Part shown: positions 1 through 17,659 of the stretch, in pieces
Numbering within the stretch: the first letter of the stretch is position 1
Layout of the letters: each line of letters opens with the position of its first letter
Origin: a virus
Strand: one strand, 5' to 3'
DNA length: 23,590 nt
Virus record (IMG/VR): IMGVR_UViG_3300009030_000346
Location: 1-23,590 of that record
Notes under the pieces: generated by a model
The model's input: only the letters and a program-made list of their open reading frames with translations
Told to the model about the DNA's origin: nothing
The model's database searches: none
Program-made: the position numbers and the translations under genes

Positions 1-279
1 ATGAGTGAGCGACTGGCAGAGATCAAGCGGAAAGCAAACCGCGAACCTATGGGAAGCAATGATGACCGCCGCTGGCTGATTGCCAAGGTCGAGCGGCTGG
101 AGCAGACAATCGTCAGTGCCACGAAGTACGCTTGCCAGGACGGCATGGAGGCTGCGGCGAAGATCAAGCTGATAGAGCCAGCAGGAATGCGGCGTGGTGA
201 TCCTACATGGGCGGCGGGATGGAATCGCGGAGTCCAAGACTTCCGTGCCGCCATCCGAGCGGAGATCAAGCATGAGTGA
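1..279 (+). CDS. Small hypothetical phage protein, first of a tandem pair
   Basis: This encodes 92 residues if the ATG at the first base is the true start; anything upstream is outside the window, so the start is unverified. The protein is hydrophilic and charged. A short helical stretch with the pattern IAKVERLEQ sits near residues 27-36. No catalytic motif or membrane segment is visible. The first residues (MSERL, then I-x-K-x-K) match the opening of the next gene, which has a similar V-x-RL helix, so the two look like diverged tandem copies. The stop at 277-279 overlaps the start of the next gene at 272, which suggests translational coupling. I do not recognise the function; its position ahead of a replication block fits a small early or accessory phage protein. 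Confidence 0.6.
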   Translation: MSERLAEIKRKANREPMGSNDDRRWLIAKVERLEQTIVSATKYACQDGMEAAAKIKLIEPAGMRRGDPTWAAGWNRGVQDFRAAIRAEIKHE

Positions 280-568
280 GCGACTAGGCCGAATAACAAA
301 GATCAAAGCGTTGTGGCTGCCAGGTATCCAAGACGAAAACTCTGGTTACATGTCAGTAGATATCGACGATGCCATCTGGATCGTTGGTGAGGTCGATCGG
401 CTGAGTGCAAAGCTATCGCGGTTCAGCGAGTTGCAATACAAGCGGCTCGATGAAGCCAAGACTGAGATCGACCGGCTGAAGGCAATACTGTCGTTCAAGC
501 GGTCCGCATCTGGCGACGTTCAGGTCGGGGTAAGATTGCCCAACCCCCAAGGAGCAACCCCATGCTGA
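272..568 (+). CDS. Small hypothetical phage protein, second of a tandem pair
   Basis: This encodes 98 residues. I chose the ATG at 272 over an upstream GTG at 194 because GGAG at 261-264 lies seven bases before it and the resulting N-terminus (MSERLGRITKIK) matches that of the preceding gene. The protein is hydrophilic. Its middle (VDIDDAIWIVGEVDRLSAKL) and the following EAKTEIDRLKAIL read as amphipathic helix or coiled coil. It overlaps the previous gene by eight bases and the next by seven. No enzyme motif is visible. A small coiled-coil accessory protein is the most that can be said. Confidence 0.6.
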   Translation: MSERLGRITKIKALWLPGIQDENSGYMSVDIDDAIWIVGEVDRLSAKLSRFSELQYKRLDEAKTEIDRLKAILSFKRSASGDVQVGVRLPNPQGATPC

Positions 569-1278
569 TCAAGACAATCGCCTCCATCGTCCTTGTAATG
601 GGCCTGTCTGCCGTAGTGCAGGCCGGTCATTTCTGTGAAACCGGCGTCGGCCTCCCCTGCATCGACATCCTGTTGACCGGCCAATCCGAAGCGAACGTCG
701 GCGACATCGTTGACGTGAACATCTCCATCGTTGCCCAACAGGACAAGGACGCCACGGCTGGCGAGTGGGTCGGCGTCGAAGTGGTACTGAATTGGGACCC
801 GGCCGTGATGGAGCCGGTGAGCCACACGATCTGCGACTCGCTCTACGACTACTTCCTCGTCTGGATATTTGTCAGCAACGATCCCGCCAATCTCTACTAC
901 GACTGCATCAACCAGGACATCAACCCGTTCGATGGTTGGCCCGACAACGACGGTGACATGAGCGTCCTCTACTTCTCCCCGCTCGGCACGGAACAGAACG
1001 TCTTTGCCAACCCAGCCATCCTCGGCACGATGCGGTTCCGCGTACTGGCTACCGGCAATCACACCGTCGGCATCACCCCATCCACCGATTGTTTCTTCCC
1101 AGACAACCCACAGGTGTTCCCGATTGAAACGCAGGTACTCGCCGGAGGCAACATCAACATGACCGGCGACCTGTCCAGCACATACGAGGTTGAGGTTCGC
1201 TCAGCGTTCGACACCGTGGACCCGCCCGGCGTGGGCATCGAGGACTTTTTAGCGTTACTGGCTGCATGGGGAACCTGA
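562..1278 (+). CDS. Secreted cohesin-like protein with planctomycete-type C-terminal tail
   Basis: This encodes 238 residues. AAGGAG at 549-554 lies seven bases before the ATG. Residues 1-22 form a clear signal peptide (charged start, hydrophobic core, VQA cleavage site), so the mature protein is exported. The body resembles a cohesin-like beta sandwich: an early strand with VGDIVDVNISI, then GVEVVLNWDPAVMEPV, and a later LGTMRFRVLATGNHTVGI. Several cysteines (positions 25 and 33, then in the CDS, DCIN and TDCFF contexts) could form disulfides outside the cytoplasm. The last 15 residues, VGIEDFLALLAAWGT, match the second half of the dockerin-like tail I know from secreted proteins of Phycisphaerae-type planctomycetes, but the usual calcium loop (DxNxDG) just before it is missing. 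A host-derived cargo gene is my inference. A virion-surface role is the alternative. Confidence 0.7.
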   Translation: MLIKTIASIVLVMGLSAVVQAGHFCETGVGLPCIDILLTGQSEANVGDIVDVNISIVAQQDKDATAGEWVGVEVVLNWDPAVMEPVSHTICDSLYDYFLVWIFVSNDPANLYYDCINQDINPFDGWPDNDGDMSVLYFSPLGTEQNVFANPAILGTMRFRVLATGNHTVGITPSTDCFFPDNPQVFPIETQVLAGGNINMTGDLSSTYEVEVRSAFDTVDPPGVGIEDFLALLAAWGT

Positions 1279-1409
1279 TGCAATACAAACCCGGAATGTT
1301 CGCCGACTGGAACGACATGATTCAGACCGTCACGACCTGGGTGGTGGTGGTTTTCTGCGCGTCCTGGCTTCTCGTGATCGGGGCCGCGCTGGTCTGGGAC
1401 CTGACATGA
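1278..1409 (+). CDS. 43-residue single-pass membrane protein
   Basis: The ATG at 1278 overlaps the TGA of the cohesin-like gene (TGATG), so it is probably translated by coupling; no good ribosome site precedes it. The protein has a short polar N-terminus (MQYKPGMFADWND) and one strongly hydrophobic helix at about residues 18-40 (WVVVVFCASWLLVIGAALVW), then only three residues. It therefore looks like a single-pass inner-membrane peptide. Small phage membrane proteins of this kind include holin-like, superinfection-exclusion and membrane-anchoring proteins, and nothing here distinguishes among them. Its stop overlaps the next start at 1406 (ATGA). Confidence 0.5.
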   Translation: MQYKPGMFADWNDMIQTVTTWVVVVFCASWLLVIGAALVWDLT

Positions 1410-4122: not shown

Positions 4123-4335
4123 ATGCCACCATCCAAACTCAACGGAGTCCTGACCCGCGTCGTCGGAGTTCTATTCGCGGTGGCCCTGCTCGCCATCCTC
4201 GGCCTCTCATTCGCTAATCAGTCATCACTAGCTGGGCACAACAGCGCCGAGGGTCCGCACGGCAAGATCAACACGGATCTCGCTGCGATCAAGACGGACG
4301 TCGAGTGGATTCGGAAACAACTAGAGGATAAATAA
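4123..4335 (+). CDS. Holin/XhlA-like small membrane protein
   Basis: This encodes 70 residues. AAGGAG at 4108-4113 precedes the ATG at a good distance. One transmembrane helix spans about residues 10-31 (LTRVVGVLFAVALLAILGL). After it comes a polar segment ending in a helix, INTDLAAIKTDVEWIRKQL, whose IKTDVEWI-x-x-L pattern resembles haemolysin XhlA and related phage lysis-associated membrane proteins, though in XhlA the helix order is reversed. Its small size, single helix and place between a possible hydrolase and a spanin-like lipoprotein make a holin or holin partner plausible. Its stop overlaps the next start by one base (TAATG). The function is inferred, not shown. Confidence 0.55.
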   Translation: MPPSKLNGVLTRVVGVLFAVALLAILGLSFANQSSLAGHNSAEGPHGKINTDLAAIKTDVEWIRKQLEDK

Positions 4336-4820
4336 TGCGCAAGCTAGTCATCGCAATCGTCCTGGTGTCCTCGGTCGCCCTCGGCGGCTGTTCCACCACC
4401 TCTCCGGAGGATCTTGCAACGTGGCAACAGTCCAGCGCCATACTCGGTGAGGAAATCACCGCGCTGGAGATCGAGTTGCTTCAGGTGTCCGACCCAATCG
4501 AGCGAGCGTCGTTGCAGGCCAAGGTCGCGGAGGCGAAGCGGGTCCACGAGATATTCGACAACGCCATCACGTCCGCGACCAGCGCAGCCGATGCGCCGTT
4601 CGCATTCATGGAGACGGCGCTGCTGGTGGCCGGTGGTTTCTTCCCGCCTGCTCTGCTCGGACTGCCGATCATCCGCACGCTTAGGCGTCAGCGCTCGGCC
4701 ATCTTCACGGCGGTTGCCGCCGGGGGCGGGCCCAACAATCCCAACTTGGCGAAGGCATCGCTGAAGTCGAACCCGGCTGCGATGAATGCGCTGGCGAAGT
4801 GGAAGGCTAACGGCGCGTAG
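4335..4820 (+). CDS. Lipoprotein with second membrane segment; unimolecular-spanin candidate
   Basis: This encodes 161 residues. Residues 1-19 form a lipoprotein signal with lipobox LGGC (Cys19); Ser follows, which in Gram-negatives is not the Asp inner-membrane retention signal, so outer-membrane sorting is expected. Residues about 35-80 are helical and charged (EEITALEIELLQ, then IERASLQAKVAEAKRVHEIFD), likely coiled coil. Residues about 91-113 are a second hydrophobic stretch followed by basic RTLRRQR, consistent with a transmembrane helix with the tail in the cytoplasm. Lipid anchor, periplasmic coil and C-terminal inner-membrane helix is the architecture of unimolecular spanins such as T1 gp11, which fuse the two membranes at lysis. 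The roughly 40-residue tail after the helix is longer than I would expect, and an ordinary phage lipoprotein remains possible. Confidence 0.6.
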   Translation: MRKLVIAIVLVSSVALGGCSTTSPEDLATWQQSSAILGEEITALEIELLQVSDPIERASLQAKVAEAKRVHEIFDNAITSATSAADAPFAFMETALLVAGGFFPPALLGLPIIRTLRRQRSAIFTAVAAGGGPNNPNLAKASLKSNPAAMNALAKWKANGA

Positions 4821-9476: not shown

Positions 9477-10379
9477 ATGTCCTTCTCAATCGACAATGCC
9501 CACGTACAAGCGTTCTCGGAGACTCTGTTCTTCGAGGCGCAGCAGCGAATGTCCCGCACCCGCGCTCACTGCACCGTCGAGAGCGGCGTGGTGGGCGAAA
9601 GCAAGTCATACGACCGAATCGGCGGGTCCGAGATGGTGGAAATCACGGACCGACACGGCGATACGCCGTTCACGCCCGTCGATCACACCCGTCGGCGCCT
9701 GTTCCTGCGTGACTACGACTGGAACGAACTCGTCGACGACGCCGACAAACTCAAGACCATCATCCAGCCGGAGAACGCCTACACCAAGGCCGGTGCCATG
9801 GCGGCGGGCCGCCGGATGGACGACACCGTCTTTGCGGCGTTGGATGGGACCGCAGACACCTGGACCAAGTCGGGAGGCGGCGGAACGGCTGCTTTCGCTG
9901 CGGGCCAGATCGTCGCGGTCGACTACATCGAGGACGGCTCGGCGGTCAACAGCAACATGACCGTCGCCAAGATGCGAGAGGCCCGTCGGCTGTTCCTGAC
10001 GAACGAGGTCCCGGAGTTCGAGCCCCTGACGATGTCGATGTCCGGCTCGAACCTGATGGCGCTCATGCGTGACGACGAAGTCACGAGTGCCGACTACAGC
10101 ACGCTCAACGCCCTGATGCGCGGTGACATCACCGGCGCGAACTTCATGGGCTTCCACATGATCCACTCCGAGCGCCAAACGCTGACCGGCAACAACCGGC
10201 ACGTGCTGGCGTGGAGCAGGCGTGGTTGCCAGTTGTCGTTCGCCAAGGACGTCACTGGACGAGTGTCCGAGCGTGATGACAAGCGGTACAGCCTCCAGGT
10301 CTACTTCGCAATGAGCCTGGGTGCGGTCCGAATGGACGAGTTGGAGGTTGTTCGCATCCTCGCGGATGAGACTGCCTGA
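9477..10379 (+). CDS. Major capsid protein (podophage type)
   Basis: This encodes 300 residues. The ATG at 9477 follows CGGAG (9464-9468). The protein matches a coat-protein family of short-tailed phages: an N-terminal VQAFSETLFFEAQQRMSRTR helix, then SYDRIGG followed by DRHGDTPFTPVDHTRRRL (about residues 45-75), DYDWNELVDDADK (79-91), and GRRMDDTVFAAL (111-122). The C-terminal half contains FMGFHMIHSERQTL and the charged VSERDDKRYSLQVYFAMSLGAVRMDELEVV typical of the family's end. It forms the icosahedral shell. Position after the scaffold, length near 300 residues and a dedicated leader all agree. Alternative roles are unlikely. Confidence 0.9.
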   Translation: MSFSIDNAHVQAFSETLFFEAQQRMSRTRAHCTVESGVVGESKSYDRIGGSEMVEITDRHGDTPFTPVDHTRRRLFLRDYDWNELVDDADKLKTIIQPENAYTKAGAMAAGRRMDDTVFAALDGTADTWTKSGGGGTAAFAAGQIVAVDYIEDGSAVNSNMTVAKMREARRLFLTNEVPEFEPLTMSMSGSNLMALMRDDEVTSADYSTLNALMRGDITGANFMGFHMIHSERQTLTGNNRHVLAWSRRGCQLSFAKDVTGRVSERDDKRYSLQVYFAMSLGAVRMDELEVVRILADETA

Positions 10380-11069: not shown

Positions 11070-11516
11070 ATGGGACTTCACCGTCTCGTTGAGAAGGTCC
11101 TGACAGGTGTCCAGTTCGGAACGGCATACGCCGACGAGATCCGTGCGATCCCGTTCGCACGCGCCGGGCCGATCGTGACACTGGTGAACACACAGCCGGA
11201 GATGACCGCGCTGACATCGGGCACGTTGTTCATCGTGCGCAGTACGGGGACGTTTACAATCCTCATGCCAAACCCCCTGACCGTCGGGGTCGGGAATTAC
11301 TGGGACTTCTTCAACGCGGTCAACCAAAACCTCACGTTCGACAGCGAAACTGACGAGATACTTGGCTACGGAGCCGACGCCGCCGTGTCGCTGCTGCGAG
11401 CTAACCAGGCCAGCGAAAAAACCGGATGGGGCGTTCGTTGGCTCTGCGACGGGGTCCAACTGATCCCAATGATCCACCTGGCAGACGCGGACCAGACCAT
11501 CGCGCACGTTTCGTAG
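11070..11516 (+). CDS. Beta-rich virion protein, paralog 1 of 3
   Basis: This encodes 148 residues; CAGGAGA ends about seven bases before the ATG. The N-terminus is a short amphipathic helix (MGLHRLVEKVLTGVQFG) followed by beta strands: LFIVRSTGTFTILMPNPLTV, then NYWDFFNAVNQNLTFDSETD, and a C-terminal WLCDGVQLIPMIHLADADQ. The same three blocks recur in the next two genes. The pattern of a strand, a LP/MP turn, an aromatic strand and then a GxxWLVF-like end is common in small sandwich domains of phage head-decoration and fibre proteins, so a surface role is inferred. It is the most diverged of the three. A near-palindrome copy (GACAGGTGTC) lies at 11102-11111. Confidence 0.6.
   Translation: MGLHRLVEKVLTGVQFGTAYADEIRAIPFARAGPIVTLVNTQPEMTALTSGTLFIVRSTGTFTILMPNPLTVGVGNYWDFFNAVNQNLTFDSETDEILGYGADAAVSLLRANQASEKTGWGVRWLCDGVQLIPMIHLADADQTIAHVS
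11102..11111. promoter_or_regulatory. Dispersed palindrome, half-sites conserved (GACA-GG-TGTC)
   Basis: This lies 32 bases inside the first of the three paralogs, with flanks CCT and CAG exactly as at 2978. It is just downstream of the terminator region, so it marks the head/tail boundary. Confidence 0.45.
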
Positions 11517-11525
11517 GAGGCTGCC

Positions 11526-11939
11526 ATGTCAGTCAGAAATATAATCGAGAATGTGTTGCTGGGACTCTCGCCAGCCGGAGTGCCGCAGCGCCGGTTGCGT
11601 GTCGTGGCAAAGGCGGCGAGCTACGGCGTGCTGGTCCGCGACAGCGGCACCGTGTTCACCACACGTGGGGCGGCCGGGTCGGTCGTGTTCACGCTGCCCG
11701 CGCTCGCAGACTCGGCGAATTGCCACTATTGGTTTGTGGCTGTTCCCGACGAGAACATGACGGTCGCGAGCGCCGAAGGCAACAACATGATCGCGTCAGG
11801 TGACGTCGCGGCGTCGTCGGTCGCCTACGCCACCGCGAACGAAAAAACCGGTGGCGTGTTCTACGTGGTCAACGACGGGACACAATGGCTCGTGTTCCCG
11901 CACCTGGCGAACGAGGGCCAGGCGATCACAATCGTTTGA
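11526..11939 (+). CDS. Beta-rich virion protein, paralog 2 of 3
   Basis: This encodes 137 residues. AGGAGG at 11515-11520, overlapping the previous stop, is an ideal ribosome site. Blocks shared with the next gene are clear: IxxxLxG...GVPQxRxR at residues about 5-25, VRDSGTVFTTRGAAGSVVFT with LPALADS at about 37-65, and a C-terminal VNDGTQWLVFPHLANEGQ. It lacks membrane segments and enzyme motifs. The strong ribosome site suggests high expression, as for a decoration or fibre component present in many copies. The exact function is unknown. Confidence 0.65.
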   Translation: MSVRNIIENVLLGLSPAGVPQRRLRVVAKAASYGVLVRDSGTVFTTRGAAGSVVFTLPALADSANCHYWFVAVPDENMTVASAEGNNMIASGDVAASSVAYATANEKTGGVFYVVNDGTQWLVFPHLANEGQAITIV

Positions 11940-11949
11940 GGAGGTTGAC

Positions 11950-12375
11950 ATGGGTTGGAAAAGAAAAGTCCAGGACATTCTCATGGGCAACCACCCGCTC
12001 GGAGTGCCACAGACACGCCGCAAGACGATCGACATCACGGGAAACGTGACGCTCTCCGTGCGCGACAGCGGCGCCATCTTCACCACGAACGGCGCGTCTG
12101 CGGCGTCCAACCTGGTTATCACGCTGCCCCTGCTCGCTGACTCGAAGGGGTGTGTCTACACGATCATCTGCACGACGGACGTGAATACGATCACAGTCGC
12201 CAGTCAGACGACAGACCTGATCACGTTCAACGACCTTTCGGCGACTTCCGTCGGCTTCAACGAGGGGACCGACGTCAATAACGTCGGCGGTGGGTTTACG
12301 TTCATCAACGACGGTACGAACTGGCTGGCGTTCGTGCATCTCGGAGACGAGGGTCAGTCAACCGTGGTGGTATGA
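11950..12375 (+). CDS. Beta-rich virion protein, paralog 3 of 3
   Basis: This encodes 141 residues. I chose the ATG at 11950 because GAGGAGGT just upstream is a near-perfect ribosome site and because the N-terminus (WKRKVQDILMGNHPLGVPQT) then aligns with paralog 2. Shared blocks are LSVRDSGAIFTTNGASAASN with ITLPLLADS, and INDGTNWLAFVHLGDEGQ at the C-terminus. A middle strand pair (VYTIICTTDVNTITVASQ) has the shape of the phage sandwich repeat. Tandem duplication is the simplest explanation of the three genes. The role is inferred as virion surface. Confidence 0.65.
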   Translation: MGWKRKVQDILMGNHPLGVPQTRRKTIDITGNVTLSVRDSGAIFTTNGASAASNLVITLPLLADSKGCVYTIICTTDVNTITVASQTTDLITFNDLSATSVGFNEGTDVNNVGGGFTFINDGTNWLAFVHLGDEGQSTVVV

Positions 12376-12999
12376 ATGGCGAACGAAACAGACGTTGTCA
12401 ACATCGCCCTGACGCTGCTCGGACAAGATCCGATCATGTCCATCAACGACGACACGACGCGGGCGGTCATCGCCAAGCGTCGGCTGCCGGACGTGCGCGA
12501 CTCCGTCCTTGAGATACCGCCAGCGTGGAACTTCGCGACGACGCGCGTGACACTGACGGCGCAACTCGCATTCACGCCAGCCTGGGGCATGACCAACGCC
12601 TTTGCGCTTCCCGCCGACTTCCTGGCCCTGATGACGACGCGCGACCAGACCAGCGAGTTTCGCCTGGAATACACCGCAGCCGACGGCCGCATCCTCGTGA
12701 CCAATATGGGGTCTGTCGATCTCATCTACGTGGCGAAGGTGGAGACGGTCAGCGTGTGGCCGCCGACGTTCGTGGACACGGTCGCGACCAAGCTGGCTGC
12801 CGAGATGGCGATCAAGCTGACCCGGAACATCAATCTGATGAAGGTCATGTACGACTTGTTTCAGGTCAAGCTGGACGAGGCACGGCTGTCCGACGCCCTC
12901 CAGGCACCGATCGAACAGGTCACGGGCACGCACCTGCTCACGGCGAGAATCGTCCCCGCCTGGCCGGACAACAGGCCGATCTCGAACCTGGTGCCGTAA
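12376..12999 (+). CDS. Tail tubular protein A (T7 gp11-like)
   Basis: This encodes 207 residues, starting directly after the previous TGA. The N-terminus has the classic pattern of this family: VVNIALTLLGQDPIMSINDD, then VRDSVLEIPPAWNFATTRVTL (about residues 40-60). A PADFLALM block follows, and the C-terminus is helical (VATKLAAEMAIKLTRNINLM). In T7-like phages this adaptor forms a ring between portal and nozzle and accepts the tail. Its length and position before the nozzle protein agree, though five genes separate it from tail protein B, which in T7 follows directly. No anomaly is seen in its key motifs. Confidence 0.85.
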   Translation: MANETDVVNIALTLLGQDPIMSINDDTTRAVIAKRRLPDVRDSVLEIPPAWNFATTRVTLTAQLAFTPAWGMTNAFALPADFLALMTTRDQTSEFRLEYTAADGRILVTNMGSVDLIYVAKVETVSVWPPTFVDTVATKLAAEMAIKLTRNINLMKVMYDLFQVKLDEARLSDALQAPIEQVTGTHLLTARIVPAWPDNRPISNLVP

Positions 13000-14211: not shown

Positions 14212-14546
14212 TGGGCTGGTACGACGAGGCGCAGGGCATACACAACGACAACGTCGTTGGATGGGCCGTGTGGTTCAGTAGCGGTGCGCAATACTGCTCA
14301 CTGTCCCACACGGCCGACCAGTTGCCCGACGGCGTCGTACAGTGCATGTGGGTCTGGTGGTTCCAGTCGCGGGACCCAGACTACTTCGCCGGGGCGTTCT
14401 ACACACAGGAGGAGTACCCGATCCCGCATTCGGATCGGATTCTCCGGGGCGGTTGGACCGACATGGAGAACCACGACACCATTTGCAAGGCTGCCGCGAA
14501 AGAGTGGTGGCCTCCGAGTTGGATAGGACCGCTCGCCCATGTCTGA
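14211..14546 (+). CDS. Trp-rich hypothetical protein (111 residues)
   Basis: The ATG at 14211 overlaps the previous TGA. The protein is unusually rich in tryptophan (WAVWFSS, MWVWWFQSRD, EWWPPSWIG) with three cysteines, has no clear hydrophobic helix and ends in GPLAHV. I recognise no family. Aromatic-rich surfaces like this can bind sugars, but that is speculation. The overlap with both neighbours supports a real gene within the tail block. Confidence 0.55.
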   Translation: MGWYDEAQGIHNDNVVGWAVWFSSGAQYCSLSHTADQLPDGVVQCMWVWWFQSRDPDYFAGAFYTQEEYPIPHSDRILRGGWTDMENHDTICKAAAKEWWPPSWIGPLAHV

Positions 14547-15348
14547 GAAGTATTTTCTGCGCGGCGTCAATGTAGACACAACCTGCGACCTGGGGTTGGA
14601 CATTGACATGGACATGAACACGGTGCAGGGGTCCGACACCTCCCCTGTTTCTGCGTCGATCAGCTCCAACACGTTCGCGGACAAGTTCAGTTTCGACGTT
14701 GATGTCAGTGGCGACACGCCGGACGACGGCGACATCGACTACAGCCTCAAGATCGACGCCTCAACCGACGTAGACATGCGTGTGCGTGTGCAGGACATCG
14801 ACGACGCAGGATGTTCGATCGGCAGCACGACGACGGGCAGCATCCACGGCGCGCCCATCGGCACGGGTGTCATCACTGGCACGTTGTCGAGTCACGTCTG
14901 GGCCGCAGCGTCCGAGCGGCTTCGCATCATCATTGAGATGCGACGCACGGCGCTGTCGCTGCACGGAACAAAGACGCTTTCAATCGCGGTGTCGCACAAC
15001 GACAGCCACATCACCGCTCAGGGGTTCAGTGCTTCTGCTCCACAGACGCTCACGCCGGATCCCCAGACGATCCCAATCCTGGTTCCCGCGCCGACGATCG
15101 CGCTGACACGTGTCCAGACGCCAGATGCCCATGCGATCCCGCTTCTGCTGCCAGCGCCGACGATCGTGTTCGGAGGTATCAGCAAGACGCCGGATCCTGT
15201 GACCATTCCGCTCGTGCTTACGGCTCCGACGATTCATGTCGTCAAGACACCAGACCCCCAAGCGATTATGATCGTCATTCCGGCCCCGACCATTGATGTT
15301 CCCGGTGCCCCTGGGGCAGTAACGACTACCTGTACCCAGTGGGGATAG
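14539..15348 (+). CDS. Fibre-like protein with four C-terminal repeats (269 residues)
   Basis: It starts inside the end of the preceding gene. The N-terminal half is acidic and beta-like (LGLDIDMDMNTVQGSD, then FDVDVSGDTPDDGDIDYSLK). From about residue 172 four near-identical 20-23 residue units follow, each of the form TPDxxxIPxxxPAPTI plus a short linker, then a final GAPGAVTTTCTQWG. This regular hydrophobic/proline repeat would make a rod-like beta stalk. There is no enzyme or membrane motif. It lies just before tail protein B, so a short appendage or spacer on the tail is a fair inference. A palindrome copy sits in the first linker (15105-15114). Confidence 0.65.
   Translation: MSEKYFLRGVNVDTTCDLGLDIDMDMNTVQGSDTSPVSASISSNTFADKFSFDVDVSGDTPDDGDIDYSLKIDASTDVDMRVRVQDIDDAGCSIGSTTTGSIHGAPIGTGVITGTLSSHVWAAASERLRIIIEMRRTALSLHGTKTLSIAVSHNDSHITAQGFSASAPQTLTPDPQTIPILVPAPTIALTRVQTPDAHAIPLLLPAPTIVFGGISKTPDPVTIPLVLTAPTIHVVKTPDPQAIMIVIPAPTIDVPGAPGAVTTTCTQWG
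15052..15300 (+). repeat. Four tandem coding repeats of about 60-69 bases
   Basis: Units begin at 15052, 15118, 15187 and 15247, each opening with ACGCC or ACACC and encoding TPD, IP and PAPTI-type cores. Unit spacing is 66, 69 and 60 bases. Codon choices differ between units, so the protein pattern is conserved more than the DNA, suggesting an old expansion under selection. Confidence 0.7.
15105..15114. promoter_or_regulatory. Dispersed palindrome site (exact GACACGTGTC), intragenic
   Basis: This exact copy has flanks GCT and CAG, in the linker of the first coding repeat (encodes Thr-Arg-Val). The other three repeat linkers do not contain it. Confidence 0.5.
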
Positions 15349-15352
15349 ACCC

Positions 15353-17659
15353 ATGGCGACACCACGGCCATACCAGTCCAATTTCACGGCGGGAGAGTGG
15401 TCGCCACTGCTGAACGGCCGATCGGATCTCCGCAAGTACGCGAACGCCGCCAGAGAGATGACGAACGTGCTTGTGCAGAAGCATGGCGGGTTTGTCCGGC
15501 GGCCGGGAACGCAGCACGTTGCCGAGGTGAAGTTTCCGGCCAACTCCGGCACGAGGCTCATTGAGTTCCAGTTCTCTGTCGACCAGACATATGTCCTGGA
15601 GGTCGGGGCCGCCTACATCCGGTTTTACCGCGACCAAACGCAGATGACCCAGGTCGCGGGCGACCCGTCTCCCGGCACCATCACCGAGATCGTGGCGCCG
15701 TGGGCTGATGCCGAACTGATCCAGGTCAAGTTCACGCAGTCGGCGGATGTTCTCTACCTCACGCATCCGGACTATGAGGTCCGGACCCTGACGCGGACGG
15801 TCGGGAACGACACCGACCCGACAACGTGGGTCCTCGCACCGCTCGACACACAGGACGGGCCCTATCTGGACGAGAACACGTCGGACGACACGCTGGACCC
15901 GGACGGCACGAGCGGAACTGTCACCATCGTCGCCAGCGCCGCAAACACGTTCGTCGCCACGGACGTCGGGCGGTTGATCCGATTGACGCATCCGACGAGC
16001 AACACGGCGGGGTGGGCCATCATCACCGTCTTTACCAACGACACAACTGTCGATGTCGAGGTCCAGGTGGACTTCACCAGTCTCGCGCCGACGACCCGGT
16101 GGAGACTGGGGAGATGGTCCGACACGACCGGGTGGCCGTGGGCGGTCACGTTCCACGAGCAGCGGCTTATCTTTGGCGGGAGCCGCAGCAATCCCACAAC
16201 GTATTGGGGCAGCGAGGTCGGCGACTTCCCCAGCTTCTCACCGAGCGACCTGAGCGACGTGACGACGGTCATCGCGACGCACGCGGTCACTGGGACCATC
16301 GACAGCAATGAACTCAACGGCATCCAGTGGATCCTGTCGGACCCGCGTGGCCTGCTGATCATGACGTCCGGCGGCGTATTCGCCCGTCCCAAGAGCGACG
16401 CCCCGCTCACGCCGGACGACACCGGAATGCGGCTGCAAGACCCGACCGGGTCCCATGCGACAGCCCGCGCGTTGCGCTTGCCCGGCGCTGCGTTGATGGT
16501 CGCCAAGAGCGGGAGACGTGTCCACGAGTTGATCTACAACTTCGACGTCGACCGCGTGATCGCGCCGGACCTGTCGATCCTGGCTGAACATATCTCCGAG
16601 TCGGACATCGTCTACACGGCTTACCAGCTTGAACCCAACAGCATCATGTGGGCGATCCTGACCAACGGGATACTCGTCGGCATGACGTACGAGCGGACCG
16701 AGCAGATCATTGGATGGCATCGGCACCCGATCGCGGGGTCCCTCAACGGCTCGGACAACCCGACCGTCGACTCGATCGCGTCTATCCGTCAGGGAAGCGA
16801 CGACCAGCTTTGGATGATTGTCCAGAGAACGATCAACGGGATGATCCGGCGATACGTCGAGTTCCAGCAGGTGCAACTCGGCCGCACGGCACACCAAGAG
16901 GACGCTTGGCACCTCGATTCCGCGCTGGCGGTCGACAACCCGCTCCCGATCGCGAATGCGACACAAGCGAACCCGGTGATCATCACGACGTCGGTCGCGC
17001 ATGGACTCGTCTCTGGCGATTTCGTCCGGATCCGCGACGTTGTCGGCATGACGGAGTTGAATCAGAACGTCTACAAGGTCGCAGGCGAGACGGCGACTAC
17101 GTTCCAGTTGCGGGATCCCGACGACGATTCGGGGATCGACGGGACGGGGTTCACTGGGTACATCAGCGCGGGCGCGGTGTATAAACACGTGACGGTCATC
17201 AGTGGGCTCGGCCATCTTGAAGGTGAGACTGTCGGCGTGTTGGCCGATGGGGGCAGACACCCCACCAAAGTTGTCGCAGGCGGGTCGATCACGCTCGAAT
17301 ACGGGGCCAGCCGGATCCTGGTGGGGCTGGCCTTTGATTGGGCGTACGAATCCATGCCGATCGTCGACCTGACGCCGGGCGCCGACACGCGCGGGGCCGC
17401 CAACCGGATCGCGCAGGTCAACCTCTGGCTGAATCGCTCGATCGGCGGTCGGCTCGGCACGAACGAGAAGCCCGGCGACATCATCGAATACCGTTCCTTT
17501 GGCGACGAGATGAAGCCGGTCGAACTGTTCACTGGTGTCCTGGAGGCTGCGTTCCCCGGCAGCAGCGGGCCGGAGGCCACCATCCGCATCACGGGCGACG
17601 GGCCTCTGCCATTCAACCTGCTCTCTATGTCGGCGGAGATCACTTCGGATGAACTTTGA
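15353..17659 (+). CDS. Tail tubular protein B / nozzle protein (T7 gp12-like)
   Basis: This encodes 768 residues, starting four bases after the previous stop. The N-terminus is the family hallmark: SNFTAGEWSPLLNGRSDLRK, then ANAAREMTNVLVQKHGGFVR and RPGTQHVAEV, reading on to TYVLEVGAAYIRFYRD. It continues as a long beta-propeller-like body (WAVTFHEQRLIFGGSRSNPT is another typical block, about residues 263-282). Residues about 529-612 hold an inserted small sandwich (VIITTSVAHGLVSGDFVRIR, then VYKVAGETATTFQLRD), a common insertion in phage tail proteins. The protein forms the nozzle through which DNA leaves. Length is close to T7 gp12 (about 790). Two half-site palindromes lie inside it (15586 and a weaker one at 16513). 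Confidence 0.87.
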   Translation: MATPRPYQSNFTAGEWSPLLNGRSDLRKYANAAREMTNVLVQKHGGFVRRPGTQHVAEVKFPANSGTRLIEFQFSVDQTYVLEVGAAYIRFYRDQTQMTQVAGDPSPGTITEIVAPWADAELIQVKFTQSADVLYLTHPDYEVRTLTRTVGNDTDPTTWVLAPLDTQDGPYLDENTSDDTLDPDGTSGTVTIVASAANTFVATDVGRLIRLTHPTSNTAGWAIITVFTNDTTVDVEVQVDFTSLAPTTRWRLGRWSDTTGWPWAVTFHEQRLIFGGSRSNPTTYWGSEVGDFPSFSPSDLSDVTTVIATHAVTGTIDSNELNGIQWILSDPRGLLIMTSGGVFARPKSDAPLTPDDTGMRLQDPTGSHATARALRLPGAALMVAKSGRRVHELIYNFDVDRVIAPDLSILAEHISESDIVYTAYQLEPNSIMWAILTNGILVGMTYERTEQIIGWHRHPIAGSLNGSDNPTVDSIASIRQGSDDQLWMIVQRTINGMIRRYVEFQQVQLGRTAHQEDAWHLDSALAVDNPLPIANATQANPVIITTSVAHGLVSGDFVRIRDVVGMTELNQNVYKVAGETATTFQLRDPDDDSGIDGTGFTGYISAGAVYKHVTVISGLGHLEGETVGVLADGGRHPTKVVAGGSITLEYGASRILVGLAFDWAYESMPIVDLTPGADTRGAANRIAQVNLWLNRSIGGRLGTNEKPGDIIEYRSFGDEMKPVELFTGVLEAAFPGSSGPEATIRITGDGPLPFNLLSMSAEITSDEL
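15586..15595. promoter_or_regulatory. Dispersed palindrome, half-sites conserved (GACA-TA-TGTC)
   Basis: A perfect ten-mer palindrome with a TA centre lies inside the nozzle gene. The wider context CCAGACATATGTCCTGG continues the symmetry imperfectly. It encodes Thr-Tyr-Val, a conserved part of the family, so chance is possible. Confidence 0.35.

What the first reader, a model, noticed from the sequence alone, without database searches (positions are those of the whole stretch)
562..1278. Phage gene for a secreted cohesin-like protein with a clipped planctomycete-type tail
Seen: signal peptide, beta-sandwich body with cohesin-like strands, several cysteines, and a terminal VGIEDFLALLAAWGT. 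Known: tails ending in DFLALLAAWG after a calcium loop are typical of secreted proteins in Phycisphaerae-like planctomycetes. Here the loop before it is gone. This points to the host lineage and to a host-derived exported protein carried by a phage. It might alter the host surface, sequester host dockerin-like proteins, or block superinfection.
Basis: partly seen in the sequence, partly recalled or inferred. Interest (0 to 1): 0.65.

Follow-up and report, generated by a model that had tools for sequence, protein, structure and literature searches.

The report
Phage-borne planctomycete cohesin-dockerin mimic
A podovirus from a metagenome carries a gene for a secreted protein built like a planctomycete's own surface-assembly parts and ending in a tail sequence found almost only in one planctomycete lineage, which points to the host and suggests the virus tampers with the host's cell surface.

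Summary
ORF 562-1278 (238 aa) is a genuine gene of an HTVC010P-like podovirus: signal peptide, cohesin-family body, C-terminal half-dockerin. The body alone passes the Pfam cohesin cut-off (24.4 vs 24.1 bits). A profile made from planctomycete relatives only finds it at E 9e-16; that family occurs in 43 of 298 genomes of one planctomycete class and in 0 of 249 of a control phylum. The tail VGIEDFLALLAAWG is a lineage 'dialect': the exact decapeptide occurs in essentially one of 84,980 species genomes (24 of 25 stretches in Planctomycetota MAG B68T1L10). The looser motif occurs 94 times there and in none of 200 other genomes of its order.

The calcium loop is not gone: it keeps its length and ligands 1 and 12 but loses 3 and 5. 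What is clipped is the second dockerin repeat. The phage tail differs from every host copy by at least 6 of 30 bases, all synonymous, so the helix looks conserved rather than freshly copied.

Best reading: an exported mimic of host cohesin-dockerin adaptors that docks on or caps the host's surface network. Function is inferred; no CRISPR link and no second phage with the gene were found.

The parts
549..554 (+). ribosome-binding site AAGGAG of the gene
   Evidence: sequence
562..1278 (+). gene for the 238-aa secreted cohesin-like protein with half-dockerin tail
   Evidence: ORF; Pfam Cohesin; planctomycete-only body profile E 9e-16
562..624 (+). signal-peptide-like N-terminus, aa 1-21
   Evidence: hydropathy and VQA cleavage-like site; no dedicated predictor was available
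649..1185 (+). cohesin-family body, aa 30-208
   Evidence: 24.4 bits vs cut-off 24.1; alignment of 15; profile reaches PDB cohesins 3l8q and 5g5d
1210..1245 (+). degenerate dockerin calcium loop, aa 217-228 (DTVDPPGVGIED): ligands 1 and 12 kept, 3 and 5 lost
   Evidence: comparison with repeats of MAG B68T1L10
1231..1272 (+). lineage-dialect dockerin helix VGIEDFLALLAAWG, aa 224-237
1278..1409 (+). 43-aa one-pass membrane protein whose start overlaps the stop of the gene; possible coupled partner
   Evidence: ORF and hydropathy 2.57; no function shown
272..568 (+). upstream phage ORF overlapping the gene by 7 nt

Best explanation
During infection the phage makes and exports a small protein that imitates the host's own cohesin-dockerin adaptors. 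SHOWN: signal-peptide-like start; body of the planctomycete stand-alone cohesin-like family; C-terminal dockerin helix in the dialect of one planctomycete lineage; second repeat absent; two calcium ligands lost; helix amino acids kept while codons drifted. INFERRED: the protein crosses the inner membrane; its helix is recognised by whatever host surface component binds that dialect; its cohesin body occupies dockerin tails of host surface proteins; and because its own dockerin is half-size and calcium-poor it acts as a decoy or chain-ending cap in the host's surface cohesin-dockerin network. The likely pay-off is masking or removal of a surface receptor (superinfection exclusion), or loosening of the surface layer.
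For: Body family and planctomycete restriction. Tail dialect confined to one lineage. Tail codons diverged from host copies with the peptide unchanged, as if the helix were selected. Host relatives are cohesin-like plus tandem dockerin or PEP-CTERM-like anchor, often as neighbouring pairs. The same MAG has a cohesin-HYR-dockerin protein, the layout of the proposed 'planctosome' adaptor (PMC6461901). Truncated dockerins have been proposed to act through a single binding mode (PMC2930009).
Against: No binding, export or infection data. The MAG shows only one, sub-threshold, cohesin, so the partner of its many tails is unknown. The phage cohesin body is very divergent (long branch), so its ligand may have changed. 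The structure could not be predicted. The gene is seen in one record only.
Confidence: 0.4

Rival explanations
1. Exported adhesin: the tail is only a sorting address that parks the protein on the host surface, and the cohesin-like body binds cells, particles or polysaccharide, changing aggregation or attachment of infected cells.
For: Single-repeat tails also occur on some host proteins (3 of 27). Relatives with PEP-CTERM-like anchors instead of dockerins show that the body is normally a surface-displayed module.
Against: Does not explain loss of the second repeat and calcium ligands; no carbohydrate-binding family was detected.
Confidence: 0.3
2. Passenger: an old host-derived gene whose dockerin is decaying, of little use to the phage.
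For: Second repeat and calcium ligands lost; very long body branch; no other phage relative carries it among 84 compared records, many of them partial contigs.
Against: Intact ORF with ribosome site inside an overlapping operon; helix peptide exactly kept despite at least 6 synonymous differences in 30 bases; phage genomes shed useless genes (general knowledge).
Confidence: 0.15
3. Lysis or virion-related protein: works with the coupled 43-aa membrane protein and the nearby lysis-like genes, or sits on the virion.
For: Start of the membrane ORF at 1278 overlaps its stop; a lipoprotein-like ORF lies at 4335-4820.
Against: Lies outside the structural module; signal peptide; no PHROG match.
Confidence: 0.11
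4. Assembly chimera joining a host fragment to a phage contig.
For: Only one record covers the region; the near-identical contig L002 starts further downstream.
Against: Overlapping same-strand genes on both sides. GC 58.8%, like neighbouring ORFs 1787 and 2595 (59.6 and 59.4%) and far from the 66.8% of the host loci.
Confidence: 0.04

Closest known systems
Planctomycete stand-alone cohesin-like secreted proteins (e.g. L050, L051, L061; bodies weakly match Pfam PF00963)
   Same: Signal peptide, same body (20-30% identity, invariant W, N, D-G, F), C-terminal dockerin in many
   Different: Phage copy has one repeat instead of two, degenerate calcium loop, long-branch body, extra cysteines
GC-type dockerin domain-anchored proteins (NCBIfam NF041540) and Dockerin_1 (PF00404)
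   Same: C-terminal helix ...LLAAWG; relative L050 hits PF00404 above cut-off, L050 and L051 hit NF041540 below it
   Different: The phage protein itself hits neither model and lacks the second repeat
'Planctosome' adaptor proposed in freshwater Planctomycetes (Andrei et al. 2019, PMC6461901)
   Same: Signal peptide, cohesin and dockerin in one secreted protein
   Different: No HYR domain; half a dockerin; carried by a phage
Cellulosomal cohesins (PDB 3l8q, 5g5d)
   Same: Body profile aligns over most of the domain (E 4e-4 and 1e-3)
   Different: No scaffoldin, no cellulose-degrading context

Membership tests
Cohesin (PF00963) | profile score over the curated cut-off | tested here: met
   24.4 vs 24.1 bits for the body alone; 23.2 for the whole ORF, so marginal
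Cohesin (PF00963) | jelly-roll fold | tested here: inconclusive
   models without alignment had pLDDT 31 and 37
Cohesin (PF00963) | binds a dockerin | not testable with these tools
   needs a binding assay
Planctomycete stand-alone cohesin-like family | matches a profile built without it | tested here: met
   E 9e-16, 56 bits
Dockerin type I (PF00404 / NF041540) | two calcium-loop-helix repeats | tested here: not met
   one repeat only; no hit to either model
Dockerin type I (PF00404 / NF041540) | Asp/Asn calcium ligands at loop positions 1, 3, 5, 12 | tested here: not met
   1 and 12 kept, 3 and 5 are V and P; 48 of 59 distinct host repeats have D or N at 1, 3 and 5
Lineage dialect VGIxDFLxLLAxWG | helix sequence as in MAG B68T1L10 | tested here: met
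   exact match; 94 motif copies there, 0 in 200 order relatives
Planctosome adaptor | HYR domain with cohesin and dockerin | tested here: not met
   no HYR hit in the phage protein

The most novel reading that the evidence does not exclude
A phage-encoded dominant-negative subunit that caps or hijacks a planctomycete surface cohesin-dockerin network: to my knowledge the first viral interference with such a network.
Probability: 0.3. Interest if true: 0.85.

Novelty: new variant of a known kind. Interest (0 to 1): 0.6.

Why it matters
Little is known of planctomycete phages, and the partners of the many dockerin-like tails in planctomycetes are unknown. A phage that keeps such a tail helix is independent evidence that the helix does something. 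Tail dialects may also serve as a protein-level host marker where CRISPR and DNA matches fail. If the cap/decoy model is right, the protein is a tool to probe what those networks do.

Tried and rejected
Close-relative scans of viral and genome collections with the whole protein found nothing, as did tblastn against phages with it (one weak, unrelated hit) and with two planctomycete relatives. A family-wide scan of viral contigs was not possible because alignment A1 is too diverse. CRISPR or prophage DNA: 55 of 248 genomes gave hits, all at noise level, and none of the eight best fetched lies in a repeat array. Recent-transfer idea: rejected by diverged tail codons. Tree placement of the body: unresolved long branch. 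tRNA-based host clue: none present. Profile of the phage capsid in 278 planctomycete genomes: one distant partial hit, neutral for host.

Full report
THE RECORD. The window is a 23,590-bp linear virus record. It is a podovirus of the HTVC010P type: major capsid protein at 9477-10379 (PF19821 E 2e-65), tail proteins at 12376-12999 and 15353-17659, nearest named phages being Pelagibacter phages and Manatee Spring podoviruses at about 31-42% identity. A near-identical contig, L002, overlaps the right part and extends to a terminase-like gene, but does not reach the gene in question.

THE GENE. ORF 562-1278 has a good ribosome site and overlaps both neighbours (7 nt upstream, 1 nt downstream), so it sits inside a phage operon. 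Its GC (58.8%) is like that of neighbouring ORFs 1787 and 2595 and unlike the host loci at 66.8%, which speaks against a chimeric join.

THE BODY. Residues 30-208 score 24.4 bits against Pfam Cohesin, over the cut-off of 24.1. Searching planctomycete genomes gave full-length relatives. Fifteen bodies align with invariant W, N, D-G and F. That profile reaches solved cellulosomal cohesins. It occurs in 43 of 298 genomes of the class of MAG B68T1L10, but in none of 249 genomes of a control phylum, that of a Gemmatimonadetes MAG. Built without the phage row, it finds the phage ORF at E 9e-16 and nothing else in 85 phage records totalling 875 kb. Membership in this planctomycete cohesin-like family is therefore firm; the exact branch is not.

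THE TAIL. The codon pattern for DFLALLAAWG was scanned in 84,980 species genomes. 25 stretches matched: 24 in Planctomycetota MAG B68T1L10 (JADFOJ01) and one on a 4-kb contig of a Gemmatimonadetes MAG, which may be misbinned. The looser motif VGIxDFLxLLAxWG occurs 94 times in that MAG and in none of 200 other genomes of its order; relatives use other endings, such as VDAADLAALLSAWG or VDGEDLARLLAVWG. In the MAG the motif is the helix of a dockerin repeat, and 24 of 27 C-termini hold two repeats. The phage tail corresponds to one repeat. It stops at WGT, the point where some host first repeats run on as WGT-DPGGPPDLDGDG (L004, L014).

OLD AND PERHAPS SELECTED. The 30 bases for DFLALLAAWG differ from each of 21 host copies by at least 6 (mean 8.3; host copies differ among themselves by 4.4 on average), all synonymous; third-position GC is 0.4 against 0.87 in the host copies. 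The helix has thus kept its amino acids through much codon change, while the calcium loop and the body diverged. This suggests selection on the helix; it rests on ten codons and on comparing copies chosen for the identical peptide, so it is suggestive only.

CONTEXT IN HOSTS. Relatives of the body end in tandem dockerin repeats or in PEP-CTERM-like anchors, and seven loci hold one of each side by side (several PEP-CTERM and dockerin calls are by motif only). The MAG itself encodes a cohesin-HYR-dockerin protein (HYR 51 bits; cohesin and dockerin below cut-off), the plan of the 'planctosome' adaptor proposed from freshwater planctomycetes (PMC6461901). The many tails and few cohesins in the MAG leave the tail's partner unknown.

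MECHANISM. Shown: architecture, family, dialect, truncation. Inferred: export, docking, and capping or decoy action on the host surface network, with receptor masking as the likely benefit. The main rival is a surface adhesin that uses the tail as an address. Truncated dockerins elsewhere have been suggested to act by a single binding mode (PMC2930009), so the half-dockerin need not be dead.

HOST. The tail dialect and the body family both point to Planctomycetota, and the tail to the lineage of MAG B68T1L10 or one not yet sequenced that shares its dialect. No CRISPR or prophage link was found, and the class name could not be checked, so the host call is good but not proven.

NOVELTY. No phage cohesin of this family was found in 50,697 phage records by tblastn, nor any dockerin tail of the patterns tried in 2.9 million viral contigs; the full-text searches listed no paper evidently about one. 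These searches are strict, so distant cases may exist. The parts are known kinds; the combination in a phage, with a host-lineage tail, is the new variant.

Noticed in passing
L096, L100, L106, L115, L118, L119, L121: Planctomycete cohesin-like genes of this family often lie as neighbouring pairs, one with a PEP-CTERM-like end and one with tandem dockerin repeats: a possible anchor-plus-subunit system.
   Followed up: partly
L003-L027 (MAG B68T1L10, JADFOJ01): The MAG carries 94 copies of a single dockerin-tail dialect (VGIxDFLxLLAxWG) that none of 200 genomes of its order shares; relatives seem to have their own dialects.
   Followed up: partly
L020 133-195: A 4-kb contig of a Gemmatimonadetes MAG carries the same tail dialect; likely a misbinned planctomycete contig.
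   Followed up: no
window 11070-12375: Three tandem paralogous genes upstream of the tail genes (38% and 27% identity), possibly capsid or tail decoration proteins.
   Followed up: partly
window 14539-15348: ORF whose C-terminal half holds a fourfold repeat of the type TPDPQxIPxxxPAPTI.
   Followed up: no
window 4123-4820: A small one-pass membrane ORF followed by a lipoprotein-like ORF (LGGC lipobox): candidate lysis module.
   Followed up: no
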